Assembly: GCA_021234155.1 (NCBI GenBank)
Contig: JAJEKV010000064.1
Coordinates: 1,426,001 to 1,490,000 of the forward strand
Direction: 5' to 3'
Source: Isoetes taiwanensis
Taxonomy: Eukaryota; Streptophyta; Lycopodiopsida; Isoetales; Isoetaceae
DNA length: 64,000 nucleotides
The notes under the pieces are model-generated. The model was not told the origin of the DNA, did no database searches, and was given only the letters and a program-made list of their open reading frames with translations. Each line of letters begins with the position of its first letter. The stretch's first letter is position 1. This document shows positions 29,486 to 54,384 of the stretch, piece by piece. The position numbers and the translations under genes were made by a program.

Positions 29486-31400
29486 AAAAGTTCTGACACC
29501 TTCGGGCCCTGGGAATTAGGGGCTAAGAGTTCAAGAGATTCTACTATAAAGTAGAATGGTTTGGTGATTGGTAAATGCACTAGCCAAGATGAGTTAAGAT
29601 GAACAAGAAATGAGCATAAGTCTAAGGGATTGATAGTATCTTAAGTTTTGATTATTATTCTGTGCTATATAAGCTAGAAAAGCTAATGAGAATGCAGTTC
29701 ATCAAGGAGCTAAACTTGGTCGAAAGTTACCGAAAATAGGATGAAATGTTAAGACGGATGTTTTCATGCAAGGCATGGACAGCGGACCATGATAATTGTG
29801 AAGGTATGTTCCTACAAATTTCTATAATTGGTAGATTGTCTAATGGTGGACCACGTTGCCGCGTTATTTTAAAGTAGACCATGTGTAGGGAGTTGTAGTG
29901 CTTTAGCAAAATCAATGCTAGGGTTGTGAGGGCCCATGAACAGTGCTTAAAGAGGTAAACTCGAGGGTTTAGGAAGTTGTAACTATGCTGAGTAGGTTCT
30001 TTTTGTGAGAAGTCACAGTAAACTATGTTCATAATCTTTTAGGGTCCCTTGAAATTACTTGTGCGAGTTGTATAGCTATAAGATACACAGATGGGGGATG
30101 TGATTATGTTTTTATTTGTCACTCTTGGATTTGGCCACCCAAGGTGTGTCATATGAATACATACCTAGTCCGACCTGAGTATCTCTCTTGCCATGCTGGG
30201 CTTAGTATTTTATAGTGCACTATTTATCCTTGGTAGGAAAAAGTGGATTAACCATATAATGCAGATGTTTGCTACGTCAGCTTGAACATGTGTAGTAAAT
30301 AATTATACGAATTTCATTATAAGTTTAGTTCCAAACTTTATACATGCTAGTGGCAAGGTTGATGCACTTAGATGTATTTAGAGTATGTGGTAGATTAAGT
30401 TGGAACTGCACCAATTTGGACGAAAATAGTAGAGCTTAAGCCATATGTAGGTTAATGAGGAAGTTCTTGTATAATAAGCACAATTTCATTATAATGGGAA
30501 AATTTTTAGTAAACTGGAATTTTTTTATTATGGGGGTTGTATAGACCTTATGCAGGGGTTGTATACACGTGTACAGTACCCTGTATCATAGACCTTATGC
30601 AGGGGTTGTATACACGTGTACAGTACCCTGTATCATAGACCTTATGCAGGGGTTTAGGACACGTGCAGTACCCGTGTATCATACATACATGAATATTTAG
30701 AGAACATAATAACACGGTATCATATACCAACTTCCAAACACAATAGAGACCAGAAGTATGAACTATGTATGTCCCTATTAACCTTCCCCGTGTTCCTAAC
30801 CCCTTCCCCTTCCCCTTTCCCTGCCTGCAGGTCTAACCCATGCATCCGGGTTAGGAGTCAAGAGCTCACGCTCCTCCCAACTGATTCTTCCCACCATATG
30901 GGGTACCTAGTCATTAGAAAAAGTAATTCCACAGGATGATACTCACGGAAGAAGAGCGGACACAACTCCACAAAACCGTTGTACTTTCGTTGTAGTACAC
31001 CCCTAATAAGGCCATACATCCGTCCCTTACAAATTTCATGAATGAACTCGATATATATACATCCGAGAGAGTGTGCTAAATATCCAAAGACGAAGAAGAG
31101 GCCTCAATTCTTTGTAGCATCTCGTCCGGATAAGGAGGGGGGTTCAAGAATTCCCCTCATTGCAAGTCTCCTATAACATTCGGATGGATTAATTTCCATC
31201 GGTGGCTCATGACCACAATCAAATCGCTCTAGAATGAAGTTGATCAACTCCATTGTAAGCTCCTTGGTGGGGCTGCGGGCACAACCTCCACTCAAAGAAA
31301 TGGTCCCATAGCTCATCCATTCCAGGCCGCCTGAGAATGCCCAGGGCATGCTTGCGTGCCTTCGAGTAGCCCAGGGAGGATTGGGTCCAATCATTTGCAA
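29486..31400 (+). other. retrotransposon interior without recognisable coding
   Basis: AT-rich sequence with no gag or pol motifs. At 30545-30690 a ~47-bp unit (around GGGGTTGTATACACGTGTAC) is repeated in tandem, two good copies and one diverged. The minus frames at 31104-31466 show no motif. Confidence 0.5.
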
Positions 31401-31409
31401 AAGCAAGCA

Positions 31410-31700
31410 AGGATCACCGACGGAGCAAGGAACACGGAGCAGAGCAAGTAGCAAGTTCAAGAGCAAGCAACAAGATCAAGTAGCAAGGAGCACGGGAATG
31501 AAGTAGCAAGGAACAAGGATCAAGATCAAGTAGCAAGATGCAATGAACAAGGAAGATCAAGTAGCAAGAAGATCAAGGAACAAGGAAGATCAAGGAGCAA
31601 GAAGCAAGGATCAAGATCAAGTAGCAAGGAACAAGATCAAGTAGCAAGATCAAGAGCAAGGAACAAGATCAAGTAGCAAGAAGATCAAGGAACAAGGAAG
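31410..31700 (+). repeat. AAGATCAAGTAGCAAGGAAC minisatellite, left part
   Basis: Irregular tandem units of 10-20 bp built from GATCAAGTAGCAAG and GAACAAG. The array continues at 36000-36270; the copia element between them split it. Confidence 0.85.
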
Positions 31701-31892
31701 TGTTAGAAATATGAGACACACACAACTTTTCCCACAAGACAAGACAAAATTTTATTCATATGAGATACATATTTATACATCAATATGAGCCACTATTGGA
31801 CTAGTGCCACAATAGGTGCTATATGTGACATACATGCCATACATGGCAAAAGGTAAAGGTGCACGTCTCCTATAGAAAGGAGATTCCAAACA
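31701..31892 (-). repeat. 3' LTR of copia C
   Basis: 192 bp, nearly identical to the right LTR but lacking CAAGAG after AATAGG. Target duplication GGAAG is at 31696-31700. Confidence 0.93.
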
Positions 31893-32065
31893 CCCTCCCT
31901 GCAACTTTAGCCTTTTGAACAAAATAATTGTATCTCATATTTAAAGATACCTCCAACCATCCCTCCCTGCATCTTTAATCTAGTGCTTGGATCAAAAAAA
32001 CCTTTTGTGGGTTAAAAGGAAATAACCCAAGCACTTTCAGAACAACTCAAGTAACAACAAAAGAT

Positions 32066-33960
32066 TCAACAATTCCAAGAGCTGCTTTGCACATCTCTTG
32101 CTTCAAGTCCTAATGCTTTGGTGAAGATGTCGAAACCATTGGCCGACGTTGGACAATATTTAAGCATAATAGTCTTCTTTTCATACTTCCAATTTGATAT
32201 AATGATAATGTAGCTCAATATGTTTAGATTTAGAATGAAAAACCTCATCCTTTGTTAATGCAATTGTACTTTGATTATCACACATGAGTAGAGTAGGCCC
32301 CACCTGAGTCTGATGAAAACAATCCATCAACCGTCGCAACCAAACCAATTCTCTACTAGCAATTGATGCAAAGAACATACTCGCCCGTGTAGTGAAAAAG
32401 AAACACATCGTTGCTTTTTGCTCATCCAAGAAACTAAGGATTTCCCAACAAAAAAACAACTCCCACTAGTAGAACGAAAAGTGTCAGGACAACCACCCCA
32501 ATCAGCATCTGTATAGCCTAACAAAGTCAATACATCAACATCATTCTGCTTTGTGTACAATAAACCACAAGTAGAAGTGCCTTTCAAGTATCTCAAAACC
32601 CTTTTAGCAGCAATCCAATGAACCTGTCCAGGATTAGTCATGAATTGACCAAGAGTATTAGCAAAGATAACTAATATCGTATGGTAGCATTGGCCAAATA
32701 CATCAACGCACCAACCAAACTAGCATAAGGACATTTTTTCATTTGCAATCTTTTCTTCATCGATTAAAGGACTTTGTTTTTGAGAAAGTTTGGAGTATCT
32801 GGAACTAACAACAAGAGGAGTACTTTGTGATTTTGCTTCACTCAAATCACCATTCAAGAAGGCTGTCTTTACATCCATTTGATGTATATGAAGATCATCT
32901 TTGCATTGCAAAAGGCTAACAACACTTTCAAAACTTGTAAGACGTAAACCGGAGAAAAGGTTTCCTCATAATCTACACCTTCAACTTGTGAGAAACCTTT
33001 GACAACAAGGCGAGCTTTGAATTTATCAAAAGAACCATCAGCTTTAATCTTGGTCTTAAAAATCCACTTACATTGAATGGGCTTTCGTGCTGCAGGTAAT
33101 TCCACAAGTTCCCATGTACCTTTATTGATCAAGGACTCATATTCAGCCTCCATGGCCATTTTCCATGATTCTCGCTTTGATCCGAACCGAGAGCATCGAC
33201 CTTGTAAATTGGATCGCCAGTCATAGCCAAAGCAGAATAATAATCTAAGATCCGTTGCGTCGGCTTCCAAGCTCGACGTGCAACAATAGCATCATCATGA
33301 GGAACCTCATGAATAACTTCATCATCATGAGCACCCTCATGAATAACTTCATCAAGACCATCATGATCTTCCTCATCATAATCACTATCATTAGCAAAAT
33401 CATAAGCAAGTTCAGGAACATCAAGAGCTTCAGCAGGATCAAAAATCGGATTATGTGCATCAAGGATAGCAGGAGCAATGAGAGGAGTAGTAGGCAGCAT
33501 AGGAACATCAGTAAAAAGATTATCATCTGAAAAAGGGAATTCAGCAAGTATTTCACTTTCATGTTGACTATTAGATTTGAAGCGTAACATAGAAAGCTCA
33601 TCAAAAGTAGCATCACGACTAATGATAACTTTTCGAGAAACAGGATCCCAAAAACGATATGCTTTAGCATTAGAAGCATATCCAAGGAAAATAGCTTTAG
33701 AGCAACAGGGATCAATCTTTTTTCTTTTTTCGGTTGGAATATGAACATAAGCGGTTACAACCAAAAACACGCAAATTAGCAACATTGGGTTTACGACCAA
33801 ACCAGGCTTCAAACGGAGTTTTGCCTTTCAAAGCAGAAGTAATCAAGCGATTTTGCACATACACAGCAGTGGCAACAGCTTCTGCCCAAAAACACTTATC
33901 CAAACCCGGAATGAATAAGCATACAACGCACAAAGATTCATGATTGTCGCGATTCTTCCT
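32066..33960 (-). pseudogene. copia C integrase end, RT (deleted core) and RNase H
   Basis: Right to left: the integrase tail (KCFWAEAVATAVYVQNRLI, KTPFEAWFGRKPNVANLRVF), AIFLGYASNAKAYRFWDP and SRDATFDE, an acidic linker, then RT start KWIFKTKIKADG and GVDYEETFSPV and HQMDVKTAFLNGDLSE. The next residues (AKSQSTPL) belong to the region well after YADD, so about 130-170 RT residues including the active site are missing. The remainder gives AKRVLRYLKGTSTCGLLY, YTDADWGG and ASRELVWLRRLMD of RNase H, with HIELHYHYIKLEV, in broken frames. Confidence 0.88.
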
Positions 33961-34420
33961 TTCAAAGAACACCATTACGTTTGGGGAGAATAAGGCGCGG
34001 TATATTCATGAAAAATACCTGATTCTGCACAAACTTTGTCAAAAGCCAAAGATTTAAACTCACCACCATTATCAGTGCGCAATCTTTGAATCATGGTTCC
34101 AGTTTGAACCTCAACCAATTTCTTAAAGGTACAAAAGATGGATAGGACATCAGATTTTTTGGAAAGAAAGTACACAAAGGTATAGCAAGTATAATCATCA
34201 ATGAAAAGAAGAAAGTATATGGCTTTACCAATGGAAACACAAAATGGGCCACAAAGATCGGAATGTACAAGTTCTAAGAAATGCGAGGGTAGGATGTCCA
34301 TCTCCAGAGAATGGATGGCGATGCTGCTTACCAAGAGCACAAGCCTCACAAACACCCAATACACCATGGGTTGACAAATTGAGACCATCCACAAGTTCAT
34401 CACAGCTCATGTCCAAAAGA
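33960..34420 (-). pseudogene. copia C integrase core
   Basis: Contains ELVHSDLCGPF, FIDDYTCYTFVYFLSKKSDV and RLRTDNGGEFKS, ending at YTAPYSPQT. The DDE aspartates are present (HSDLCG and TDNGGEF). The frame is shifted from gag-protease near 34300, and the downstream NGVMVFFERKNR part is in another frame. Confidence 0.88.
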
Positions 34421-35802
34421 GCTTGAAAGTTAGCATGACCAAAGCGTCGATGCCACAAAGTACCGATATCATCACCACGAGATATCACAACATTAGCAAA
34501 CTCATCATTCAGTTGAAGAGCATAAAGATTGCCTTGGCGAAAAGCAGTGGCAAAAACAAGACCATCTTTCACAAAACGGCAAACACGGTTATCAAACTGA
34601 ACAAGGAAGCCAATATCAGTAAGACGAGCAAGAGAAAGGAGATTGTGGGAAAGGTCCGGCACATGTAGAACCCCATGCAAAAGCCGCACACCAGAAGATG
34701 TGCCAATTTGAAGAGTACCAATGCCTTTGACAGCAAGGGGTCTATTGTCACCAAGATAGACAAATTTCTTAGCAAGAAGAGGACGATATTGAGTCAACCA
34801 ATGCTTGTGATGAGTCATGTGTTGAGTGGCAGCAGAATCTACAAGCATAGAATCATTAGCTTTAACCATTTCAAGCGCATCATGGACACAATGTCCCTCA
34901 TCTCGCATGCCAAGAAGAAGTTTATGCTCAGTAGCAAATTTTTTATAATAACATTCTTCTTCAGGATGGCCAGACTTTTTACAATATTCGCAAACAATAG
35001 AGCGACCACGACCATAGCCACGGCCACGGCCGCGTCCACACCCACGACCAGAACGACCAGCATGCTCATCAGCATAATTATCCTGATCATCATCACGAGA
35101 TCGTTTAGAACGAACCACAAGAGCTGTTTCTGTCTGATCTTTAAAATATTTTTGAAGTTTGGTAGCTTCATCTTTCAATGAAATATGAACACGATCTAGA
35201 GTGAGGTTGGCTTTATTGAGCAAAACGGTACGAACAACCTTGAATTCTTCTGGCAAAGTTTCTAGAAGTGCAACAATTTGTTGTTGAGGTGGCATGACCT
35301 CACCAGCAATAGACAAGCCATCTACAAGAGTTTTAAACTTATCAAAGTGAAGGTCAAAAGATTCTGTGAGGCTATAACGAAGATTTGCAATATCATTGCG
35401 AAGACTATAAATCTCATAGACAGTCTTTTGCTCATAAACTTTGTCAAGGTAACTCCAAACCTCAGCAGAGGTTTTGAGATCCCTAACATCCATCAGAATG
35501 GATTCTTTGAGTGCATAATGTATCAAAGAACGTGCCGCTTTATCTTTTTCTTCCCAGTCAGCTAAAAGCTTGACCCAAGTATCGTATTCAGCTCCACTGG
35601 TAGCAAGAGCACCAGCACTAGTCAATGGTTGTTTAGGAACACGGATTTTACCCGTGACGTAATCAAAAAGTTTGTCACTCTCCAACACCAACTCCAACAT
35701 AAGCTTCAAAACAGGGAAGCCAGATCCAGAAAAGACGTAAAGTGTCTTTGTCCCGGAGAGCCCGCGAAAAGTAACAACAGAAGAGCTTGGCTCTGATACC
35801 AT
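34225..35802 (-). CDS. copia C gag-protease polyprotein
   Basis: The ATG overlaps the primer site just after the LTR (MVSEPSSSVV), a common arrangement. The long frame holds a UBN2-type gag (about residues 35-215, with LIHYALKESI and YSLRNDIANLRYSL), an Arg/Gly-rich basic stretch, the zinc knuckle CEYCKKSGHPEEECY, the protease active site LVDSAATQHMT, and the GAG-pre-integrase motif WHRRFGHANF with CEACALGKQHRHPF. Only the join to integrase is broken, so gag-protease could still be translated. Confidence 0.88.
   Translation of the reverse strand: MVSEPSSSVVTFRGLSGTKTLYVFSGSGFPVLKLMLELVLESDKLFDYVTGKIRVPKQPLTSAGALATSGAEYDTWVKLLADWEEKDKAARSLIHYALKESILMDVRDLKTSAEVWSYLDKVYEQKTVYEIYSLRNDIANLRYSLTESFDLHFDKFKTLVDGLSIAGEVMPPQQQIVALLETLPEEFKVVRTVLLNKANLTLDRVHISLKDEATKLQKYFKDQTETALVVRSKRSRDDDQDNYADEHAGRSGRGCGRGRGRGYGRGRSIVCEYCKKSGHPEEECYYKKFATEHKLLLGMRDEGHCVHDALEMVKANDSMLVDSAATQHMTHHKHWLTQYRPLLAKKFVYLGDNRPLAVKGIGTLQIGTSSGVRLLHGVLHVPDLSHNLLSLARLTDIGFLVQFDNRVCRFVKDGLVFATAFRQGNLYALQLNDEFANVVISRGDDIGTLWHRRFGHANFQALLDMSCDELVDGLNLSTHGVLGVCEACALGKQHRHPFSGDGHPTLAFLRTCTFRSLWPILCFHW
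35788..35801 (-). other. primer binding site of copia C
   Basis: GGCTCTGATACCA on + is the complement of TGGTATCAGAGCC, directly inside the right LTR. Confidence 0.85.
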
Positions 35803-35999
35803 GTTAGAAATATGAGACACACACAACTTTTCCCACAAGACAAGACAAAATTTTATTCATATGAGATACATATTTATACATCAATATGAGCCACTATTGG
35901 ACTAGTGCCACAATAGGCAAGAGTGCTATATGTGACATACATGCCATACATGGCAAAAGGTAAAGGTGCACGTCTCCTATAGAAAGGAGATTCCAAACA
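35802..35999 (-). repeat. 5' LTR of copia C
   Basis: 198 bp; target duplication GGAAG follows at 36000-36004. High identity to the left LTR suggests a fairly recent insertion. Confidence 0.93.
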
Positions 36000-36425
36000 G
36001 GAAGATCAAGGAGCAAGAATCAAGGAACAAGATCAAGTAGCAAGATCAAGAGCAAGGAACAAGATCAAGTAGCAAGGAGCACGGGAATGAAGTAGCAAGG
36101 ATTCCGAACAAGGATCAAGATCAACTGTAGCAAGAAGCAATGAACAAGGAAGATCAAGTAGCAAGAAGATCATGGAACAAGGAAGATCAAGTAGCAAGAA
36201 GATCAAGGAACAAGGAAGATGAAGGAGCAAGAAGCAAGGATCAAGATCAAGTAGCAAGGTGAAAAGTGAGAAGTGAAAGCAAGGTAAAAGAATTTATAGC
36301 TACGAATCCAATAATGTTGAAGTATAATACCAATAATGTTGAAGTATAATACCAATAATGCTGAGGTATAATACCAATAATGCTCACGATAATAATAATA
36401 ATAATGCTGAAGTATTATACCAATA
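36000..36425 (+). repeat. minisatellite, right part, then AT-rich tandem units
   Basis: 36000-36270 continues the GATCAAGTAGCAAG array. From 36305 to about 36425 units of about 22 bp around ACCAATAATGTTGAAGTATA repeat several times. No gene. Confidence 0.75.
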
Positions 36426-36943
36426 ATTCTACAACGACTATAAAAGCAGCTCCATTCTGGTAGAAGTCATTCATCTCCCATGGCTTATAATATCTATGAG
36501 TATGAAGATCGGTTTGAGACCATTCTTTGCTCCATGAGCTACAATGATATTGTTCGGTGCATACATAAAAGCAGTTAAAATTTGGATCCCTACTTGCAAT
36601 CCAAAGGCGATGGTCCCGAGTGTCATTGCCCCGGCCTTACTCGTGTTGTGATCCATCTTCTTTGGCTTCCCCGAACGTCGTGCCTATGAGCTGAATGCGA
36701 TCCGTTAGCGAGGATTGAAGATGAGTGAATCATCGACTCTATAATGCCATCAATAATATGTGCATCTAAATTATATGTATGCCATCAATAATGTGTGCAT
36801 CGATATAATGATGTGTATTAAACACCTATTATAAAAGATGTAAGGATGTTAGTATAAGCATAATGAAAGCTAATTGATGTATCGACAATGTATTAATTGT
36901 CCAAAATGCTTAAGTATTATAGCAAAAGAAATTACATACATAA
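36426..36943. other. 3' flank of DUF7869-type gene, no gene supported
   Basis: A 61-residue minus frame (36656-36471) with a hydrophobic middle has no recognisable motif or context. The rest is AT-rich and probably 3' UTR or spacer of the minus-strand gene. Confidence 0.35.
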
Positions 36944-39900
36944 TTATCGAGAACATGACTGAGATTGAGAGCTTTTAGCTAATGCTATGTCCCCCCACAT
37001 GTCAACAATGTATTTTGGAATCAAGCAGTCTTGGGTCTTTTTGCCATTTGCATCCCATGCATAATGTATGGCATCTAACTTCTCATACCTTGATGGATCT
37101 GATGGATTGGGTCGCCAACGTTTAGTTAAGCAACCTGTATAGTCACGACCAACAGGCATCCACCATGATACATAAATGTGACCATAATTGGTAGACTCTG
37201 GATCTAGGATGGCATCTTCTTCTGTAAAGCCCAACTACGTTGGAGTTTCATCGTCTCCAGGTCGGACTAAAACAAACATACCTTTCGTAACATGTGCATG
37301 AGGATCGAACTCATCCATAGGCAACACCGGACGCCCATCTGGCTGGCCCACAATGTCGTAGGCAAAGGTCTTACAAGCCGCAGCGGCTTCATCGACCTCT
37401 GGAGTAAATGCAGCTTGTAGAGGTTCTTGCCTTGTACGCAACCAAAAGTTATCATTTTGAGGTTGTCCTGGAGATACATCTTCCAAACACACAAGAATCT
37501 CGTTCCAGTAATCCATAGTTGCTTTGTACTGTCGTGCAAACACATATCTTCTTGATTTTTGCAGAAGGAATTCCATAATGCTATGTACTTGCGATCTTTG
37601 TCTCGCCAAAGCCGAGATCTTTCAATGTCTTCCTTGGAGGAATATTTTTAGGCACCCCCGTTGGTAACGTTGGCTCACCATTTTCATCCTCCTTCCACAT
37701 TCTTATTCCTTTTTCTAGAATCCACTCTTTATGGGTTGGCCGCATCTTATATTGCATAATGGGCCATTTCCCATCCATTTTAAATCGAATAGCAATGGGC
37801 CTCGGTATGGCTGTTAGGCGTTGGCCTTTATCGGGGATATATCCCTTGACAAAGCCTTTCAATCGGAACTTCATCCACAAAATATGGAATAGGAGACTTT
37901 GCATTGCACTTGCTAAACAAGTAAAAGCAACTTCGAGCAAAGTTAGAGCATCCGATGAACTCATTAACGTCGAAAAGTTCTCAAACAATGCATCAATATC
38001 GTCATGAGTATGCCCAACCATCATGAAGCCAACCTGAATCTCATCGAATACCTTAAGCCATGTCAAATAAGAGAGGTAGGAGAACACATATCTATTTTTA
38101 TTTTGACCCGATGCATTATCCAACTGTAAGTAGAGATTTCGAGGAAGAGGATTGAAGCCTTCTAAGTTGGCACTAGAAGATGAAGGCATCTTCTCTTGTG
38201 TCTGCGCTAGCTTATGCTGCAGTGGTCGAGTATCTTTTAGGGCTTGCATCAATTTGCAATCTGTAGTTCTGCTTCCACACAGATCACCACACTTGTCTTC
38301 TTCCGGCAACTCAAGATAGTGTAGGATCCTAGAAAGTGATCCAACATGAAAGTTTGCATCATCCTTCCAAAGATCAAGAGAGAAATGGCCATAAGCCCGT
38401 CCACCATGACCATGTGTCAATGCTCCTGTCAAGCTGCTCTTCAAGCGATCTCCTCTCCAAACAGACTTTGCGAGATGGTGACTTCTTGGTGTCAGTGTTT
38501 TGACCTGATCCATCTTATCATGTATTATGCAAAGGTGACTTTCTGGCGAACGATGTGATAATGCACGCCAATGCCAATATTGACTCCTACAGGAACGTTG
38601 TTCCAACATATGTGCCCGCCGTTGAATTGAAAGGTTGCGCCTCTCCCTTGTATCTTTTGTTCTTTCCAATTTCTGCTTGATGACTGCACATATGTTACAC
38701 TTGGAGAATGCTGTATTTTTTGCTATGCTGACGTCTGGAAACTCTTTCTTCTAAATATTGTAAAAAGAGGGCAAGGTTACACTCTGTCCTGTCAATTCTT
38801 CCACCACGGCACCCACTTCCTTATGTATGCTCTTCTTATTAAGAATGGAAGGAAGTTTGCGAACATTCTCCCTTATATCATCCTTTCCTTTTTTGCTTCT
38901 ATGTGGAATGCTCTCCGCATTCTCACTAATGAAGGTATCAAGCACACTTTCTGTAGCTAGTGTCACAGATCTAGGCTTCTTAGAGCCTGTATTACCATGC
39001 TCCGCCCGTTTTCCACCTAACTCGAACCTCTTCCTCCAACTATAAAACGTAGACTGAGCAACTCCTAAAGCCACGTGCCATGCGAATTGATAGCACTCCA
39101 CTCCAGAGACCACTACTTTCGCCTCCGACTGCCCTGTATAAGTTACACTCAACACATAAAAAACAAGCGTAATCCTGGCAGATTGAGAATAAAATTCTTT
39201 TCTTAAGGCACATACTTGCTCGCCTCGGGTTTTTTTGACACATTAGCCCCTTGCAACATGTTGATTTTAGAGCACTCTTGATTGACTTGGAAGCGCACAT
39301 CCTCTCCTCCTTGCTATCCCCCTTTGGTTCCCTCCTGACCCTCTTCACATATGTATATTTCCTTTTCCTCTTGAATTGCTTCTCAACATCAGCTTCCAAG
39401 CACTCAACTTCTAAGTCATCCTGTTCGAGAGTAGCTCGAGCTTGTAAATGTTGTGAAACTGTCCTACCATCATGAAGCAAAACATCATAGGTCTCCCAGG
39501 TTACTAGACTGTTAGCTATAGGCCTCTCAGCACAAGCATGACATGACCTGATATTTTGGTTTCCCGTTGGATCTATTATGTTACCCACTGAAAGCCCGAC
39601 CTTTAATACACCCAAGAACTCATCGTCTTTAGCATCCTGAGGATCACTAAAGACTATATTCGCCTCCGAATATTTAGATCCAATGCAGGAGTGAAGAATG
39701 TAGCATGGCAAACCTAGTAGATCTGCTGCGGGAGTAGTAGATCGTCTCATCTTCAGGCTTAAACAACTTTGAGACCAAGGCGGGCAGCTAGATTCTCATG
39801 ACCTCAATCTCCTCTACTATCTCGTCTTCTTCATTTGTTGCTGTGTTGCTTGGTTCACCACAGTGAGCAGTGAAACTGATGTCCGGCGGGCTACTGACAG

Positions 39901-40218
39901 ATGGTGGACTACTAGATGAATCCTCTTCTAAAGAGGGCAAATTGAGGGATCTCGAAGACGTATCTTCACTTGAGGGGCACTCATTTTGTTTTACATCCCT
40001 CTTAGGCCACTGAATGAATGTGTCTACTGCTTCACCAAAGTTATCTGCCCCTTCGCAGGGGACTGGAAGCTCGGTCGATGGGATCACGGACTCCGTGACC
40101 TCAATAGCTACATTTGAAGGATCTATTTCCTTCCCATGAAGAGTGGTTCTATTCAAAATATGTCCCCGGGCAACAATTGTCCTTCCGACGAATAGGTTGT
40201 ACAAGGGAAAATTGAACC
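36944..40218 (-). pseudogene. DUF8039/DUF7869-type transposase-like gene, damaged
   Basis: The minus reading starts after a CAG acceptor at 40218, so an upstream exon is expected. Segment 1 (40218-39788) reads YNLFVGRTIVARGHILN then LHGKEI and FIQWPKRD, like DUF8039. Segment 2 (39750-39040) is basic and Cys-rich. Segment 3 (39155-38751) has a helix-turn-helix-like GVAQSTFYSWRKRFELGGKR with HGNTGSKKP. Segment 4 (from about 38710) has CNIC, LCIIHDKMDQVKT, then LYLQLDNASGQNKNRYVFSY and GFMMVGHTHDDIDALF, the DUF7869 signature with RNase H/DDE-like acidic residues. Segment 5 (37609-36944) is the C-terminal part, split by an in-frame TAG at 37235-37237. Frames change near 39100 and 37600. A mobile-element origin is inferred, not shown. 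Confidence 0.75.
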
Positions 40219-40288
40219 TGTTTCAATCAAGCAAGACGACACTTTTTAGAACATATGAATTAGACGAAAAATAAGCAATAAATACGCA

Positions 40289-40640
40289 AAAATGGCGCCA
40301 TTTAGTACAAAAGAAAAATTTTTGGTCTAAATTTGGAGCTAAATGGCGCCATGGCGCCATTTGGTCGTATCGGTGAACACTTGGATCAAATGGCGCCATG
40401 GCGCCATTTGATCCAAATTCAAACCTATGGCACATTCATTGGTGTGAATTTGGAACAAATGGCGCCATGGCGCCATTTCATCCAAGTGCCAAATTTGGAG
40501 CCAAATGGCGCCATGGCTCCATTTGGCTCCAAATTTACACCATTTCAACCGTGCCCACCATTTTCAACCGAATGGCGCTATGGCGCCATTTAGACCAACA
40601 CCATTTTAAGGGTGTATTTGGAATAGAATGGCGCCCTGTG
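40289..40640. repeat. palindrome cluster 1 (GGCGCCATGGCGCC core)
   Basis: Five full or near-full palindromes made of the core GGCGCCATGGCGCC flanked by AAAT and ATTT lie at 40341-40362, 40388-40409, 40457-40478, 40503-40524 (one mismatch) and 40571-40590. A half form, AAATGGCGCCATTT, is at 40290-40303. The copy at 40381-40416 extends to a perfect 36-bp palindrome. The cluster lies just upstream of the first visible exon of the minus gene, probably in its first intron or leader. Confidence 0.95.
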
Positions 40641-40684
40641 ACATGGGGCGATTTGGCTTAGCTCCATCACAAAATCTACACGAC

Positions 40685-40756
40685 GTTCCTATGTTATGCA
40701 TTCTTGCTCCCATTGATGTATGTGTCAATAAGAGCAGGCATGCATAACATGGGAAC
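40685..40756 (+). ncRNA. imperfect stem-loop, candidate small-RNA precursor
   Basis: Arms 40685-40709 and 40732-40756 pair over 25 positions with 22 Watson-Crick pairs, 2 G-U wobbles and 1 mismatch. The 22-base loop can add five more pairs (ATTGA with TCAAT). This is the shape of a short plant miRNA precursor or a tiny fold-back element. I recognise no known miRNA. It lies between two divergent genes. Confidence 0.35.
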
Positions 40757-40969
40757 CCCATGCCAACTTTGCAATTGAAACCAAGTTTCTTAGTGTCCTA
40801 GCAGCATTAATGTCAGCATTTGGACACGCTATACACATGGCAGCAATAGAACAGAATTCATACCAGAAATAGTGGACTTACTTGATATTAGATAGATCCA
40901 TAGTGGTATGTCCTGGAGCAGTAGATGGAACAGGAAAATCAAGCTGATCCCAGCAGATAAATTCGCAGA

Positions 40970-41110
40970 AGAATGCGCCAAGAAGAATTCGCCAAGAAGA
41001 AAGCGCCAAGAAGGATTCGCCAAGAAGAAAGCGCCAAGAAGAATTCGCCAAGAAGAAAGCGCCAAGAATCACCTGGGATTTCTGTGAGCGCCAAGAAGAA
41101 AGCGCCTGAC
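40970..41110. repeat. CGCCAAGAAGAA minisatellite
   Basis: About ten units of roughly 14-15 bp alternate GCGCCAAGAAGAA and TTCGCCAAGAAGAA. The hydrophobic minus frames over this stretch are products of the repeat. Confidence 0.9.
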
Positions 41111-41875
41111 AGCACGCATGCGCCTTGCAAAGTTTCTGCCTAGGCGCCTGAGAAAAGAAGCGCGCCTTATGCGAGCGGCAGCTGAGACGAGCAGGCGGAT
41201 TCGAAAGCGCCTGAATCGTGCACGAAAATGTCTGCGTCGTGGCATGGTCGCATTAAGTGGGAGCACGGCGACAAAGAGGGAGCTTTAAATGCAAAGTACA
41301 ATTTTAAAAGCGGACGATTCAAATTTGGACGGATGGCATCAAATTTCAATTCTGGGGAGAATTTTGACTTTTATGTTAATTCGCGGTGGTAGGGAATTTT
41401 GAATTTTATGTTCAAATTTGGTAGTGATTAGAGCCGGAAATATTGAATTTCAAAATTCAAATTTAGGCGGGCATGGGCGCTGGACATACGATGCATGGCG
41501 GGCATGGGCGCTGGACCGCCACCTGGCATGGGGCGGGCATGGGGTGCTGGGCCGGGCATGGCGCTGGGCGACCCGCAGGCCCTAGTTGGCGCTTTGTGTG
41601 TATTAAGCGGATAGCCAGCGGCCAAAGTTTGTTATGCCTAATTGTTTTTATGAAGTTTCTCATTCGGTTTTTTCGTTTTCGATTCCAGCTCCTAGCGCCT
41701 CGACCTTAAGCGCCCGGCGCCCGGCCTAAGTCGCCAGACACCTAAGCGCCCAGCGCCTAAAGCAACCTTCTTCGTCCTTTGTTTTCAGTGTTTTCTGGCA
41801 CCATTTCCCCACAGTTCAGCGCCTCAACACATCTAGCGACACACCAGCTTTCGGACCAAATTCAAGGCGCTCGAA
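41111..41875 (+). promoter_or_regulatory. presumed promoter region of ParB/methyltransferase-like gene
   Basis: The stretch is locally GC-rich with many GCGCC and GGCGC words (41460-41580, 41695-41760) and no coding. It ends at the ATG at 41876. No clear TATA box. Divergent promoter use with the minus gene is possible. Confidence 0.3.
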
Positions 41876-41976
41876 ATGGAAATCGACAATTCTAGAGCTC
41901 CTCAGAATGTGGAGACAGCTGCTAGCGCACCTCAAGGGACATGTATGTCATCTACTTGCATTGTTTTGTTTGGGCT

Positions 41977-42870
41977 AAATGGCGCCACCGCGCTATTTAG
42001 ATGCTGGTAGCCACTTTAGGGTCTTAATAGTTGACAAATGGTTGGATGCCTGAGCGCACTTTAGGAGTCTATTAGCTTACTTTAGGATGCCTGGTAGCTT
42101 ACTCTAGAGGGTCTTTTGCTACCAAATGGCGCCGCGCCATTTGATGTCTATTAGCTTACCATAGGGCCTTGTTGTTGGCAAATGGCGCCATGGCGCCATT
42201 TGATGTCTATTAGCTTACCATAGGGCCTTGTTCTTGGCAAATGGCGCCATGGCGCTATTCCATGTCTATTAGCATACATTTGGGACTTGTTGTTGGCAAA
42301 TGGCACCATGGCGCAATTTTTATCTGCGTCCAGTCCATAAACACTAATGGAGTCATTCGCATATGTATTGCTCCTACGAATCGCAGGTGCCTCTACCCAG
42401 TCAGAGCCACTCTCCTTCCAACCATCTTCCGCGAATATTGCGAAGGGGAGGGGCTCGTCTTGGAGTGGAAACCTCGCGACTTACGCAGGAAATGCATTCG
42501 AACTACTTCCATGTGATGCACTGAACTCGGATGCAAATGGCGCCATTTGCAGGTCAGTGGAAATTACAGTGCACTTTGTTAAAACGGACGACTAAGCAAA
42601 TGGCGCCATGGCGCCATTTGCATCTGAGTTCAGTTCCGAGGTAGCTTGCTTCTCATTGTGTTGCGTTCTGTAGTGCTCTCTCCTATGAGTCGCAGGTGCC
42701 TCCACCCAGTCAGAGCCACTCTCCTTCGAACCATCTTCCTCGAATATTGCGAAGGGGAGGGGCTCGGAAGCTGGAGGCCTGGAACGACCAAACGCTGAGG
42801 ATATGCATCTGAACTGCTTCCATGTGCTTATGCATCGACTCAGATGCAAATAAATGCCACGGCGCCATTT
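41977..42870. repeat. palindrome cluster 2 in intron 1
   Basis: Copies lie at about 41977, 42124, 42180, 42239, 42298, 42533, 42596 and 42852, perfect at 42180-42201 and 42596-42621 (extended to 26 bp). From 42124 to 42298 they are spaced 56, 59 and 59 bp with similar spacers (GATGTCTATTAGC...CTTGTTGTTGGC). Another ~100-bp unit with CAGTCAGAGCCACTCTCCTT repeats at about 42373 and 42662. Confidence 0.93.
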
Positions 42871-42951
42871 ACCTACCACAACCGATTATGCACGCTTGTT
42901 GTTAAAACCATTTACTGATGCCTCTTTGTTACTGATGCCCCTTTGTTGCAG

Positions 42952-44660
42952 CTATGTTACGTCCGGAAACACAATTTCAATCCGACCAGACTATCATGCT
43001 GATAGACAGGTACTGGTGCATGGAAGTAATGCGGGTGAGCCCCTCTACTCTACAGGGCTCGAAGGAGATCTGCGAGAAGAGAGCTCTGCCTCCTTATAAA
43101 GGAGACGACCCGAATCGGCCCAGGCATTTACCGGCCGGTATCTTGATCCACATGAAGATGGTTGCCAAGAGCGGTCGCGAAGATTGGATCCGGGTGGTCT
43201 GTGGGGATACTATGCGTGAGAGAATAATTGTCTACTATGTGGACTGGAAGTTTTATGATCCGGATTTGTAATGTCTCGCTAGCATTGCAAATGTAGCTGG
43301 TTCCGCGAAGAAGCAAGGCTGGGCGCTGCCATCGTACAACAGCTTTGAAGAAGCTGACATCAAAGGCCCACAAGAAATCTTGAGGGGCTTTATGATTCTT
43401 CGCAATCGTATGAACGAGTCAAAAAACTCGCCTTCATTCGCTGAAGGCTTTAGCCCGCCAGGTTACTACCCGCCATTGTGGACACGACCGGCTAAAAACA
43501 GCTTAGCAAGAAGAAGACAAGACAAACTAAGGAGACACCGCAAATTTAAAAAGACTCCTCATCTTTCTATCGAGGATGTGTCCGTGAAACCCACTTTTAA
43601 GGAAAGGCGGCGGGGCAAGCGGAAAAGTTAAGAGAAAGGATCACAAAGATCCTGAGAAGGAAAAGAAGGAAAAGAAGGAAAAGGAAAAGAAGGAAGAGAA
43701 GGAAGAGAAAGAAAAGAAGGAAAAGAAGGAAAAGAAAAAGGAAAGGAAAGACAAGGATAGGGATGGCAAGGGGCAGAAGGAAGGAAAGGCGAGACAGGAA
43801 AAGGAGGGAAAGGAAGTGGAGACAGAGGAAATGGATGGGAAAAAGAAGAAGAAACACAGGCTGGAGCACCAAGAAGGATAGGACACCTAAAAAGCAAAGA
43901 AGGCAGACTCAGGCTCCTAGTCCTGCTGGAAGTCCAAGAAGTGGTGGTGAAGCTCCAAGCCCATCGCATAGCCAGGATCCTGCGGACACACCGGCCAAAA
44001 GGGTCACCATTCAGAAGCCAGAGCGCAAGCTTACCTTAAGAATTGCTCAGCACTTGCTAGAGGTGCCTGCAAATCTTAAGGTCGAAAGGTCAGAAGAGGA
44101 AAAGACGGCAGAGAATACACTGCAAAAAATTTACGATCACCGGCATCTGTTTCCTCTGGGTGTCACATTTATAAAAAAGATAGACGTGTTCAAACTATAT
44201 CAAGGGCCAGCAAATCTGACATCTAGACCAAGGAATATGGAGCACGTCAAAACGTTAGTGGAGTCCTTTCAGAGAGACCCACATCCAGTGTTCACTCCCG
44301 CTGATGTGATTCCATTCAATCCCCTCACAAACAAACTGGTCCCTTGGAAAACCGAGGATGACCTCATGGGGATGCACTATTATATAGTGAATGGCAATCA
44401 TTCAGTTATGGCTGCTCAGCTTGTATGTAGAAGACTCGGCACAGCAAAGTCCTAAGAGCAAATGTCAAAGATTTATCTTCAACGGAATTGCCGAGTGTTT
44501 GCTTGCAGCTCAGTTGTGAAGTCAATGATATCACTGCGAAGACTATTTTCAAAGAGCCCTTCATTGATAACATAACCCACCAAGGCGGCAATATATGCTC
44601 TATCGCGGGGAAGCCCGATCCATCGGGACGCTTGGCGATCCACGCCGAGAACCATACAAG
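42952..44660 (+). pseudogene. exons 2-3: N-terminal region and ParB/sulfiredoxin-like domain
   Basis: After the intron the frame reads DRYWCMEVMRVSPSTLQGSK, a region I do not recognise, then VDWKFYDPDL and TAA. The same frame continues openly with CLASIANVAGSAKKQGWALP up to 43631, so one codon is mutated. A purine-rich Lys/Glu repeat (43640-43870) follows. The ParB-like part (about 44160-44660) reads VTFIKKIDVFKLYQGPANL, NMEHVKTLVESF, then HYYIVNGNHSVMAAQL, matching the ParB pattern of an opening strand, a helix with L..S, and a closing [VI][VI].G.[HR]...A[AL]. After intron 2 it continues LSCEVNDITAKTIFKEPFID and ends GRLAIHAENHT. ParB-like domains bind or act on DNA; this residue pattern is the main evidence. 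Confidence 0.55.
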
Positions 44661-44691
44661 GTACATACTGTTGTAATTGTTGGCAAGATTA

Positions 44692-44774
44692 GCAAATGGC
44701 GCCGTGGCGCCATTTGCTCATTAAATGGTGCCGCAGCGCCATTTCTTCACTAAGTGGCGCTGCGGCGCCTTTTG
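44692..44774. repeat. palindrome cluster 3 in intron 3
   Basis: Three imperfect copies (44692-44717, 44723-44744, 44752-44774) in which the central ATGG is replaced by GTGG, GCAG and TGCGG forms. They fill about half of the 156-bp intron. Confidence 0.9.
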
Positions 44775-44816
44775 CTCATTAAATGTCATTGAAGGCTAAC
44801 TTCTTGTTGTTTCCAG

Positions 44817-46410
44817 CATTATCTGGCTTTGGCTGAAGTTACCATGCGTGATAAGCATCCAAAAGATTTCAACGGTGGGTCTTCATGCGGAGGATATTTT
44901 TTCGCTTATTCATGTCCCTATGGAACTTGTGGAAATCTGGCAAGCTAAAAGACAACAAGGGACAAACTATTACCTGTAACTGGGCAAAAGAATCTGACTA
45001 CTTCAGTCAAACCTACCTGAGGTGCATGAGGGGACTCGACTACGAAGACTGTCGTGTTCTGTTCCAGGAAGTGCTGGATGAGAAGACCTTCGTCAAGGTC
45101 ACCAATGATTATACATGTAAGCAATTCTTCAAGGCAAGGGCAAAGACACTAAGATCCATATCTTTCTTGAAGAAGGAGATTTTTGAATATGTGAAGGATA
45201 ATTTTCCGAGGAAGTTCAAATCCTTCACTGATCTCAGTACTGCCGTGCCGGGCTTCGAGGATACCGACCTGATTGCCATGGCCACCTTGCATAGTAAGTG
45301 GGTTGAAACTGGAGTGACCAAGGAAGGCGTTTTCGGTAACGTGCCACCTGCCTTGGCAAGATTCATACGCAATCTTTGTCTTGCGAGAGAGGATCTTGAA
45401 GACTTCGTTCGCGAGTTGAACTAACAGACAGCAGGGGGCAAGTTAGATGCACTCCTGTACCAGTATCCTTGATTGTCCTGGACACTAGAGGCATAATTCC
45501 AATGTGGGACAAAACCACACTATCTAATTTCTTTAATACAGCTGTAAAGAACACCACAGCTGATTCTTTCTGGATAGTGGTCTTTGCAAGGCCGGAGCAT
45601 AACTTTTTGATTTCATCTGTGTTGGATGATCTGGATTCCAGATCCAGAGTTTTTATTGGCATGTATGAGGACGAATACAAGAATCCGCCTGCCCCAGGAG
45701 TTCAGGAGGTCCATGCTCTAGTGTACGCCACAAAGATTCAGGCCACTGCAGGTCATCCTGTCGATGCAATTGACCTCAGATTCCCGTTTGCCGATCATCC
45801 TCAAGAACTGCCTGGCTTTCCTGTGCCTAACGAAGAAGACGAAGACGGGGAGACTGAGGCTATGGCGGAAAAGCTCGCAAATGCCAGTCCAGTGCGGTAG
45901 GCAAGGCTTGCCGGGGACATAATCATGAGAAACCACCGGGCCTGCCACATGCTCCTACCTCGTCTGAGAAAAATGGTACCGCCGAGAACAGGGGTGTTTG
46001 ATTACTTCTCTTGTGGTTCGTTTGGCCGGGCTTCATTGATGAATAAGAGATTTTGCATTGTGTTCGAAAGTGAACCGGTTAAGCAGCAGTGCCTACAGGG
46101 CATTCTTGGTAGGCTTGACTGCCTACTGAATCCTATCATCGCAGCAGTTCCTATGACAGAGAGACAAGGTGCTGTTGTTGAAGAAGCTGTAGATCCACCA
46201 AATCCAGAGATGCCTGAAGCTCCACCCGATGTGGACTATGATGTGATCAAGAACGCACAATTCGATCTGGACATTCTTAATGATCCCAATTTCACTGCCA
46301 CAGCGTTCGAGAGCTTTCAGGGAGATCCTATGGTTGCTTCTTCTAGCCATGGCCCTGGCAATGCAGAACCTGATCCTGATGTGGAACCTGATCCTGATGC
46401 AGAACCCTGA
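44817..46410 (+). pseudogene. exon 4: middle region and beta-class DNA methyltransferase-like fold
   Basis: Starts YLALAEVTMRDKHPKDFNG, shifts frame, then reads LWNLWKSGKLKDNKGQTITC and a helical region with DLIAMATLHSKWVE. From about 45440 comes PVSLIVLDTRGIIPMWDK, then SFWIVVFARPEHNFLISSVL, and later GVFDYFSCGSFGRASLMNKR with FCIVFESEPVKQQCLQGIL. The last resembles the S-adenosylmethionine site of N4/N6 DNA methylases (VLDPF.G.GTT..A...GR...G.E....Y). The order, catalytic-motif position before the FxGxG-like motif, matches the beta class. The catalytic DPPY or SPPY appears as LDTRG, so activity is doubtful. The tail is acidic (DPDPDVEPDPD-like). Confidence 0.5.
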
Positions 46411-47820
46411 ATTTTGTGTGAATATAATGTAAATTGTACAATAATACTCTTGTAAACAGACTCTCTCTTCCGAGTCCTTGCCTGTTGTGGCAAATTTTTT
46501 GATATGCAAATCTATGAATTTGGAAATTTTAACTAATTTTGTAATGTTATGTTTCTCTAGCTTCATTATATGCACTGTTAGTATTTTTAATGGCGCCAAT
46601 AAATGACACTTTAGATGCATTTTTTTTTTTTAAATGGCGCCATAATTGCTCAAAAAATTGGCATTAAATGAACTAAAAAGGATTTTCGTTCCTAATTGGA
46701 ATCACGAAATTTCTCATTTTAATGAAATTGTGCTTATTTTCGTCCATCCCCTCTCTGTTTATTCCGGATTTGGAACTTCGATTTTGTTAGGCAGCCAAAG
46801 GTTTGCGGAAGTTTTCAAGCATGATCTTTTAGTTCTGAGCAGTTCAATCATCCAAGAATGTATCAGACTGTGTTGCTTACTTGAAGTCTCTCTTTACAAG
46901 CCATATGACAGTTTAGATCTTGGCGCAGTGTAAGTGGATCTTTGTCTGCCTATTGTGCTTGGTTGATTCTTGGAGCACTCGTGCTGTCTGCCGCCCATCC
47001 CAGCTTAGGGGAAGACGATCTTCTATCTAACTTGTTCAGTTTGTACAGATTAGATAGGGAAAGATAGCAAATAAGTAGACCTCGGGCGGGAGACCAGGTT
47101 TGTTTTGCAGTTGGAAGGAGCGTTGGAAGTTGTGGCCTATGCTAGGATCTGGGATGTGTTTTTGGGGGATATGGCGAGACCACCCCTTTGGGGCAGGCTT
47201 GGGAGATGTCCTTCATAGCGGGAAGACAGAGCACCTCTTATAGTATCGCTATGTTGTGGATTACAGAGCCTAGTTAACGTGCGGGATGGAGCTGGCTTTC
47301 CTGGCCTTTCAGGCACTTTGCATTTTCAAGGGGACAAGCCTCAAGTGGTTGCATCTTCAGGAAGTATTGTGTTATCTGTCCTTTATGTGTGATAGAAACT
47401 TTATGTGTGATAGAATTTCTTCTTGGCATCTCAATTTGACACCCCTTTCGAGGGATGAATGAGATGTCCCAAACAGGTGGAAAGATCCAGGGGCTGTTTC
47501 CTTAGTATCAGTTATTCTTTAGAAGAGGTGTAGGTTTGTGCCAGAGTACTCATCTTTGAGGAAAAAGGGATGGGCCTCCGTTAGTATGAAGAATAACATA
47601 GAAGAAGTAGAGCTACCTTTGCTCAAGTACTAAGTTTGTGCATCTTATCCACCCCTCTTCTTGTGTATGGTTCGAATACTTCCTATCTAGCCTATTATGA
47701 GGCATGTAATAAGGTCTTGTACCATTTCTTTATCAATAAAATATAAATATCTTGCCTCCCAAAACAAAAGAGGGAAAAATAACACATCACATCGCAGAGT
47801 GTAACTCAATTATGTTACAT
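46411..47820. other. 3' UTR, last palindromes and non-coding spacer
   Basis: AT-rich 3' UTR with TGTAAA-type polyadenylation signals near 46430-46455. Partial palindromes (AATGGCGCCA at about 46590 and AAATGGCGCCAT at 46632) mark the right edge of palindrome-bearing DNA. From 46700 to 47820 I see no coding; AATAAAATATAAATA at about 47735 may be a polyadenylation region of something upstream. Confidence 0.5.
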
Positions 47821-52319: not shown

Positions 52320-52589
52320 CTATTTGCCCTGCAACTGACTGATTGCTTGCTTGCCAAAATGCTGATGAGTGAAACCCATTGCTTGCTTGATGCCGCGGGC
52401 TGCTTGCTTGCTTGATGCCGTGCCAGTTACCCGGTTGGAAATATTCGTGATCTAGAAGGCACGAGACCGCCAGTTTATAGGCAACAAAGGGTTTGGAGTA
52501 GTCACCAGCATATTCTAGCATATACCTAGGATATGCCACAAACCCGCATAAGCAAGGGTTTGCCCCCCCTAGGGGCAACCCAAAAAGAG

Positions 52590-52935
52590 AGTAGTAGATC
52601 TACTACAGCGGAAGCTCTGGTCATTAAGGCGGATATTGAACGGTGACTATGTTAAATGATGTTTCTTATAAATGACGTGCTTAAACGCCGAACGATGAAT
52701 ATAAAGGCCCAAGCAGGGTTCAAAAAATACCTGGATAAACCCTTTGTTTGTCTGGTCCACTTTAGAAATTGCTGGTCGAAATTTTTGGATGCTGGAAAAA
52801 ATCCGATAGAAAAAAACATAATTTAATGTAAAATCTGGTATATTTGTATCTTGTTATGAATATACCCTGTGCCTATTGTATATAGCCGGAAAATTTATCT
52901 GGTGAAGGCTGCGGAGTTTTTTGAACCCTGAGGCC
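52590..52935 (+). repeat. partial copy of subtilase promoter
   Basis: 52590-52710 matches 9620-9745 (GTAGATCTACTA, CTCTGGTCATTAAGGCGG, TATAAAGGCCCAAG) with deletions. It then breaks into unrelated sequence until the next copy begins near 52940. Confidence 0.8.
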
Positions 52936-52939
52936 CAGT

Positions 52940-54384
52940 ATTAGATCTACTAGCAAATCTACAGCGGAAGCTCTGGTCATTAAGGCGGCTATTGAACGGT
53001 TCCTAAGACTATGTTACATGATGCTTCTTATAAACGACGTTCTTAATCGCCAAATGATGAATATAAAGGCCCAAGAATACTTGCCTTCTTCAGTTCAAAA
53101 ATGGATACTTCACTGGCTCACGCATCTCTGGCCATCCTTCTTGTTACGACGCTTTCCCTATCTAGTCGGACTTACTGATGTCTCTTCTTATATAGTCCTC
53201 ATGGATCAGACCAAAATGGGAAGACCGTATATATCATCCGGGATGTGGTTAATCCGGACACCCGTTATCAGCCATTGTGGTTAATCCGGACCTGCGCAGT
53301 TTGAAGCCCAAAAACCAACTGTTTTTGCCCTTTTTTTGATCGATTCTGCTCTATTTCGCCTTAAATCTCTTCCTCTCTTCATCAATCTAACATAAAAGGG
53401 GCATACAAAACGATTGGCATGCTTTTTAAAGCGGATCAAACCGCCCACCGAGCGGCAAAGAGTGATCCCGATCAAAATTTCCCCCCCCCCGCGATTCTCA
53501 CGCTTGGTTTTTGTCCGGATTAACCACTTTTTGTCCGGATTAACCATTTGGCTGATATCGGATGTCCGGATTAACCACCACGGCTGATATCGGATGTCCG
53601 GATTAACCACTCAGGCGTCTGGGATGTCCGGATTAACCACTCTGTTTTGTCCGGGATTAACCACATCCCTGATGATATATCACGGAGTTCCGCACAAAAT
53701 GCCTGCAATTTTTAACCACTATGAAGAGTGGTACTCTAGTCGACCACCAAATTAACTTATGTCTACAACAACAAATTCCAAGGCTTTTTTAGGCGAAATG
53801 ACGGCTCTCAAGTGGAAGCAATCTGACAGAAAATGAACGGATTTGTTGCCATATTTGGAGAAAGGTGCATCGATTGCATACAACACGCGCTCTCGAGTTG
53901 TTATCTCTAAATTCAAAGCCACCGGAATTTGGCGAGAGATGGACTATGGAAGCAACGTGATTATTGGGTTTACGGATACGGGCATATGGCGAGAGTGCAA
54001 GCTTGAGACACGGGCATAGGAACGGTACCTACAAAATGGAAAGGGGTATGCGAGGCAGGAGTTGGGTTCAATTCTTCTCATTGCAACGAAGCAAGGTACT
54101 ACTACAGGGGCTATTTGAGTAACTACGGTGCTCTAAATTGGAGCACAGAGTATGATTCTGCAAGAGATAGCCCGGGACACGGTACTCACACTGCGTCAAT
54201 TGCTGCGGGAAATTATGCTACAAATGCAAGCTTGTTTGATCTTGCACAAGGCACTGCTAGAGGCATGGCCCCAAACGCCAGAATTGCTGCTTACAAACTT
54301 TGCTGGGAAGAAGGTTGCGCCGATTCTGATATCATTGCAGCCATGGATCAGGCTGTGGCAGATGGAGTTGACATTATTTCTATC
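52940..54384 (+). pseudogene. truncated subtilase pseudogene with insertion
   Basis: Promoter, leader and codons 1-~40 match the intact gene (ATG at 53101), with the signal peptide partly deleted. A 476-bp insertion (53219-53694) interrupts codon ~42. Homology then resumes with AATGCCTGCAATTTTTAACC and continues with many small indels through the Asp region (about 53960), the His region (SPGHGTHTAS at about 54170) and DIIAAMDQAVADGVDIISI, ending abruptly at 54384. The Ser region and C-terminal half are absent. Cannot make a protease. Confidence 0.92.
53219..53694. mobile_element. MITE-like insertion in subtilase pseudogene
   Basis: CAAAATG occurs on both sides (53212-53218 and 53695-53701), as a 7- to 8-bp target duplication. 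The ends are long inverted repeats: ATATATCATC-GGGATGTGGTT at the left matches AACCACATCCC-GATGATATAT at the right. Inside, GTCCGGATTAACCAC is repeated about five times. TSD length suggests hAT or Mutator type; no transposase. Confidence 0.75.

What the first reader, a model, noticed from the sequence alone, without database searches (positions are those of the whole stretch)
40289..46645. Palindrome family confined to one locus and to its non-coding parts
Seen: at least fifteen copies of a palindrome with core GGCGCCATGGCGCC flanked by AAAT/ATTT, all between 40.29 and 46.65 kb, in the leader or intron of the minus gene, in introns 1 and 3 of the plus gene, and in its 3' UTR, never in exons; none noticed elsewhere in 64 kb. 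Known: ParB proteins recognise palindromic parS sites, and methylases recognise palindromes. Inference: the palindromes could be binding or marking sites of the encoded protein, making a self-targeting system.
Basis: partly seen in the sequence, partly recalled or inferred. Interest (0 to 1): 0.88.

Follow-up and report, generated by a model that had tools for sequence, protein, structure and literature searches.

The report
Palindrome arrays in a plant transposon's introns
A short mirror-image DNA word is repeated inside the introns, and not in the protein-coding parts, of an abundant two-gene jumping element in a plant genome, and it has been kept although the sequence around it changed, so it probably marks where a regulatory protein binds.

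Summary
In the window, 23 AAATGGCGCC half-sites all lie at 40.29-46.64 kb, none in coding exons. Genome-wide the 22-bp palindrome has 3308 sites against 1 for a reversed control; all 15 clusters that I read (of 18 listed) lie in copies of one repeat. It is a DNA transposon: 30476-46735 here, interrupted by a copia insertion, with terminal inverted repeats, 4-bp target duplications (exact in 10 of 13 copies), a DUF7869 gene and a divergent second gene, mostly about 11-12 kb long, plus 2.8-3.0 kb derivatives; the 7 derivatives read keep both main palindrome arrays. Three diverged copies, saturated at synonymous sites, keep palindromes in the same introns although the flanks of the arrays no longer align. 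Across 13 copies, 0 of 150 sites fall in 70,281 bp of exon-like sequence. Best reading: arrays of paired protein-binding sites around a divergent promoter; the binder is unknown. The ParB label found no profile support. The half-site resembles YY1 sites of mammalian first introns but mostly misses the last base of the plant YY1 consensus.

The parts
30476..46735 (+). Whole DNA transposon copy (about 12 kb of element plus a 4.3-kb LTR retrotransposon insertion)
   Evidence: Homology with the other copies read starts and stops here; motif search of the ends
30476..30512 (+). Left end with terminal inverted repeat, AAGCACAATTTCATTATAATGGG...
   Evidence: 423 genome copies of the 37-bp end with up to 3 mismatches, reversed control 0
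46699..46735 (-). Right end with terminal inverted repeat (reads AAGCACAATTTCATTAAAATGAG on the minus strand)
   Evidence: 495 genome copies with up to 3 mismatches, reversed control 0
31701..35999 (-). Nested copia LTR retrotransposon inserted in the transposon's left subterminal tandem array
   Evidence: LTR pair 31701-31892 / 35802-35999, 97%; copia-type gag and Pol_BBD domains at 34225-35838; homology of other copies runs from one side to the other
36960..40217 (-). Minus gene, large exon(s), DUF7869 (PF25273) putative transposase; not open throughout in this copy
   Evidence: PF25273 E 2.5e-34 for 37581-38669; splice borders read by eye
40218..40881 (-). Minus gene intron 1, palindrome cluster A (10 half-sites)
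40882..41875 (.). Divergent promoter region with the start of the minus gene and a 14-bp tandem array; no palindrome half-sites
41876..41942 (+). Plus gene exon 1
   Evidence: Translation and splice borders
41943..42951 (+). Plus gene intron 1, palindrome cluster B (10 half-sites, partly in 59-bp tandem units)
42952..44660 (+).
   Evidence: 151 matches genome-wide, a lower bound
44661..44816 (+). Plus gene second intron, palindrome cluster C (29-bp units)
44817..46410 (+). Plus gene last exon; broken in this copy
46587..46645 (.). Two GGCGCC half-palindromes within about 150 bp of the right end

Best explanation
The palindromes are arrays of paired protein-binding sites (half-site close to GGCGCCATTTG, two half-sites facing each other, usually 10 or 2 bp apart) that belong to a two-gene DUF7869 DNA transposon. 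They sit in the first introns of both divergently transcribed genes, on both sides of the shared promoter, with smaller groups in the second intron of the plus gene and near the right end. Shown here: the sites track the transposon in the clusters read, avoid exons, persist in the same introns of diverged copies whose array flanks no longer align, and are kept by the deletion derivatives read. Inferred: a sequence-specific protein binds them to control expression of both genes (intronic enhancer or autoregulation), and the region may also be needed in cis by the derivatives. Not known: whether the binder is encoded by the element or the host.
For: 3308 sites against 1 control, that is 6.7-7.8 per end counted (495 right, 423 left). 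15 of 15 clusters read, of 18 listed, lie in element copies or derivatives; the other 3 have an element end 2-8 kb away. 0 of 150 sites in 70,281 bp of exon-like sequence over 13 copies. C1066, C995 and C941 (62, 64 and 60% identity to the window's domain; pS 0.70-0.81 in all six pairs of the four extra copies) carry 15, 14 and 12 sites at up to 5 mismatches in the same introns, while with palindromes masked the arrays' surroundings give no alignment to the window. Core changes are mostly one-sided: among 86 distinct cores 13 complementary double changes, 10.6 expected from independence. Half-sites face each other in 208 neighbouring pairs within 12 bp, against 36 diverging and 50 direct. The 7 short derivatives read keep clusters A and B.
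Against: No binding, expression or chromatin data. Within the short derivatives palindrome columns are not clearly better conserved than their surroundings (cluster A 0.931 against 0.872, cluster B 0.880 against 0.893). Arms outside the core are palindromic more often than chance (19 of 165 flank pairs against 3.4 expected), which a plain dimer site does not need. The derivatives are 85-93% alike and may be one lineage, so their retention of the arrays may be one historical event. The clusters read come from the first contigs of a capped listing, not from a random sample.
Confidence: 0.58

Rival explanations
1. Narrower version: the binder is the host's YY1-type zinc-finger factor, and the arrays give intron-based enhancement, as YY1 sites do in the human UbC first intron, and as YY1 does on LINE-1.
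For: The half-site GGCGCCATTT contains the YY1 core GCCAT and nearly equals the Peg3 first-intron motif GGCGCCATCTTT (PMC11602158, passages); YY1 sites in the UbC intron are tied to intron-mediated enhancement (PMC3680475, abstract); Arabidopsis YY1 binds a CCATnTT motif (PMC10146089, passages). 122 of 182 sites keep GCCAT in both halves and 53 in one.
Against: The base after CCATTT is T in only 16 of 212 flanks (G in 151), so the full CCATnTT is mostly not met. C>T at the second C of CCAT, a change that PMC11602158 tested as a loss-of-function variant, occurs in 21 of 364 half-sites. Whether this genome has a YY1 gene was not tested, since the search machine did not answer.
Confidence: 0.2
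2. One reading: the plus gene encodes a ParB-like protein that nucleates on these palindromes as parS-like sites and marks or partitions the element.
For: A conserved VNGNHSVxAAQLV stretch recalls the ParB/sulfiredoxin signature (the likeness is recalled, not from a call); the gene looks constrained (dN 0.34-0.49 with saturated synonymous sites) and lies beside the sites in the autonomous-length copies read.
Against: No Pfam, NCBIfam, PHROG, PDB-sequence or protein-database match supports ParB.
Confidence: 0.08
3. The palindromes act as hairpins in the intron RNA or as cruciforms in DNA, for example to help splice long introns.
For: The three introns that I read all have them and exons have none; arms are extended palindromes in 19 of 165 flank pairs against 3.4 expected, with unrelated arm sequences.
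Against: No clear compensatory coupling inside the core (13 complementary double changes, 10.6 expected); frequent one-sided changes that break pairing; half-sites also occur near the right end outside introns; no Rfam match.
Confidence: 0.13
4. Neutral by-product: a palindrome that happened to sit in the introns multiplies by fold-back copying and slippage into tandem arrays, with no function.
For: Arrays have different unit lengths and flanks in the diverged copies (for example 59 and 29 bp in the window, about 41 and 83 bp in C995); extended arms suggest fold-back copying; weak column conservation in derivatives.
Against: It must be re-made with the same core in the same introns after the flanks became unalignable and synonymous sites saturated, and no cluster outside the element was met among the 15 read.
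Confidence: 0.2

Closest known systems
En/Spm (CACTA) transposons with TNPA-bound subterminal motif arrays
   Same: Two proteins per element, and reiterated short motifs that vary between subfamilies; the TNPA role is from PMC2613891 (passages)
   Different: Here the arrays are mostly internal, in introns around a divergent promoter; ends are AAGCACAATTT and not CACTA; duplication is 4 bp and not 3
Clustered YY1 sites in first introns (Peg3, UbC) and in LINE-1 promoters
   Same: Nearly the same half-site and position in first introns; PMC11602158 passages, PMC3680475 abstract
   Different: Here sites are inverted pairs in a plant DNA transposon, and the last T of CCATnTT is usually missing
ParABS partition systems
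   Different: No ParB profile match; no ParA was looked for; the parS sequence (recalled) is different
DUF7869 proteins (PF25273)
   Same: The minus gene belongs to this Pfam family; 87 homologues found at E<=0.01
   Different: One library search found no paper with the family name; two database searches found no homologue of the second gene

Membership tests
Class II DNA transposon with terminal inverted repeats | Terminal inverted repeats | tested here: met
   AAGCACAATTTCATT at both ends; 423 left and 495 right ends in the genome
Class II DNA transposon with terminal inverted repeats | Target site duplication | tested here: met
   4 bp identical in 10 of 13 copies with both ends read, 3 of 4 bases in 2, not matching in the window copy (compared by eye)
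Class II DNA transposon with terminal inverted repeats | RNase H-like DDE transposase | tested here: inconclusive
DUF7869 (PF25273) | Match over the curated cut-off | tested here: met
   119 bits, cut-off 26
En/Spm (CACTA) | CACTA termini and 3-bp duplication | tested here: not met
   Ends AAGCAC, 4-bp duplication
ParABS | ParB_N domain | tested here: not met
   PF02195: no match at E<=1 in the genome, 2 candidates of the first look scored; the fold itself could not be tested
ParABS | ParA partner gene | not tested
   No search made
YY1-bound site arrays | GCCAT core | tested here: met
   Both halves in 122 of 182 sites, one half in 53, none in 7
YY1-bound site arrays | Full CCATnTT plant consensus | tested here: not met
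   T follows CCATTT in 16 of 212 flanks
YY1-bound site arrays | YY1 gene in this genome | not tested
   The genome search did not complete

The most novel reading that the evidence does not exclude
A lycophyte transposon family with its own sequence code: an otherwise unknown element-encoded protein and its palindromic sites are kept together across subfamilies, the sites being housed in introns and near one end, where they couple expression of two divergent genes and also act in cis for mobilisation of derivatives that lost the genes. Diverged copies favour different symmetric variants of the core (CATG, CGCG and GAG/CTC centres), as if site and binder change together.
Probability: 0.25. Interest if true: 0.78.

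Novelty: new variant of a known kind. Interest (0 to 1): 0.55.

Why it matters
Motif arrays that DNA transposons use to control themselves are known to me mostly at their ends (CACTA elements, PMC2613891, passages). Arrays in the introns of both genes, kept through saturating divergence and in derivatives without the genes, would be a different layout, in a putative transposase family (DUF7869) that my one library search did not find named in print. If YY1 is the binder, the same site type in first introns of mammalian genes, in LINE-1 and in a plant transposon would suggest a repeated solution. Hundreds of copies in one genome make it testable.
Full report
Check of the observation. The palindrome family is real. 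Ten places match GGCGCCATGGCGCC with up to two mismatches, all at 40345-44711, where shuffles give 0.07 on average. The half-site AAATGGCGCC occurs 23 times in the 64 kb, all at 40290-46641. By compartment, 10 lie in the first intron of the minus gene, 10 in the first intron of the plus gene, 2 in its second intron and 1 near the 3' end; none lies in the large exons, in the promoter stretch between the genes, in the left end of the element or outside it. I read two introns in the plus gene and one in the minus gene, and all three have palindromes. Exon borders were read by eye from the sequence; no transcript was available.

Where the window comes from. The window's assembly has 1,658,258,908 bases in 1110 contigs. 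The published Isoetes taiwanensis assembly is 1658.30 Mb in 204 scaffolds plus 909 unplaced contigs (PMC8566536, passages). I take the organism to be this lycophyte; this is an inference from size alone.

What the palindromes belong to. Genome-wide, the 22-bp form AAATGGCGCCATGGCGCCATTT has 3308 sites with up to two mismatches and the reversed control 1. Ten loci were read in 20-kb stretches and five more clusters in 3-kb stretches; all 15 clusters lie in copies of one repeat or its derivatives. The other 3 of the 18 clusters listed were not read, but an element end lies 2 to 8 kb away. The sample comes from the first contigs of a capped listing and is not random.

The repeat is a DNA transposon. 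Homology between copies starts at 30476 and stops at 46735 in window coordinates. Both ends carry AAGCACAATTTCATT in inverted orientation; 423 left ends and 495 right ends were counted with up to three mismatches, controls 0. Of 13 copies with both ends read, 10 have identical 4-bp flanks, 2 agree in 3 of 4 bases, and the window copy does not match. The window copy is interrupted by a copia element at 31701-35999. Pairing listed exact ends (100 left, and 80 of the 100 listed right ends) gives 48 lengths: 11 of 2.77-3.01 kb, 1 of 7.2 kb, 1 of 9.3 kb, 25 of 10.9-12.1 kb and 10 of 16-27 kb, the last presumably with nested insertions or wrong pairings.

Evidence that the motif is kept. Across 13 copies none of 150 sites falls in 70,281 bp of exon-like sequence. 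In C1066, C995 and C941, whose domain is 62, 64 and 60% identical to the window's, palindromes sit in the same three introns. When they are masked, exons, parts of the promoter region and a piece of the minus intron beside the array (about 40660-40790) still align with the window, but the arrays and their immediate surroundings do not. The arrays have their own unit lengths and flanks in these copies, yet the units carry the core. Some copies prefer symmetric variants, such as AAATGGAGCCATGGCTCCATTT in C941 and AAATGGCGCCGCGGCGCCATTT in C995. The 7 short derivatives read keep the left and right palindrome clusters; two of the short or intermediate ones compared directly with the window (C64, C179) keep little of its coding sequence. 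The 7 are 85-93% alike, so they may be one lineage.

What kind of site. Half-sites AAATGG and CCATTT face each other in 208 neighbouring pairs at up to 12 bp, against 36 diverging and 50 direct; 132 pairs have spacing 10 and 37 have spacing 2. Among 86 distinct cores (209 sites), changes are mostly one-sided; 13 complementary double changes compare with 10.6 expected from independence, and 20 double changes of any kind with 16.3. The most constant positions are 2 and 3 of the half-site: 2 and 3 changes in 364 half-sites. This fits a protein that reads sequence better than a hairpin. Against this, arms outside the core are palindromic more often than chance (19 of 165 flank pairs with at least 7 of 10 complementary, 3.4 expected), and in the derivatives palindrome columns are hardly better conserved than their surroundings. 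Fold-back copying at the core could explain the arms; I could not test it.

Who might bind. The half-site GGCGCCATTTG contains the YY1 core GCCAT, and a YY1 site in the first intron of Peg3 is written GGCGCCATCTTT in PMC11602158 (passages), a paper on YY1 as an activator of mouse LINE-1 Tf. YY1 sites in the human UbC 5'-UTR intron are tied to intron-mediated enhancement (PMC3680475, abstract). Arabidopsis YY1 is reported to bind a CCATnTT motif (PMC10146089, passages). In the sites here T follows CCATTT in only 16 of 212 flanks, and G in 151, so the match is partial. Whether the genome has a YY1 gene could not be asked. The other candidates are the two encoded proteins.

Closest known. CACTA elements use a DNA-binding protein and repeated subterminal motifs (PMC2613891, passages). 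The present element may work like that in outline, but its arrays are mostly in introns, its ends are not CACTA and its duplication is 4 bp, so it is not filed there. It belongs to the DNA transposons with inverted ends and carries a DUF7869 gene; its superfamily is open.

Verdict. The likely function is a set of paired protein-binding sites that control both genes of the transposon.

Noticed in passing
window 31701-35999: Copia LTR retrotransposon nested in the transposon's left subterminal tandem array; LTRs 97% alike.
   Followed up: partly
window 30564 and 30611: A second, different palindrome (TACACGTGTA), twice 47 bp apart near the left end, where the GGCGCC family is absent.
   Followed up: no
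window 40953-41082: Tandem array of alternating 14-bp units AAGAAGAATTCGCC and AAGAAGAAAGCGCC inside the divergent promoter region.
   Followed up: no
window 31396-31700 and 36000-36293: Purine-rich tandem array (GAAGATCAAGTAGCAAG-like) in the left subterminal part of the transposon, split by the copia insertion.
   Followed up: no
window 40663-40778: 54-bp imperfect inverted repeat with an 8-bp gap in the minus-gene intron; part of it still aligns in diverged copies.
   Followed up: no
L029 (C1066), cluster B: Palindrome units occur in both orientations with reverse-complement flanks, as if segments between palindromes had been inverted or inversely duplicated.
   Followed up: no
window 9787-12048 and 52582-54383: Subtilase gene (PF00082, E 5e-53) with duplicated stretches, 88-90% alike, about 43 kb away.
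   Followed up: no
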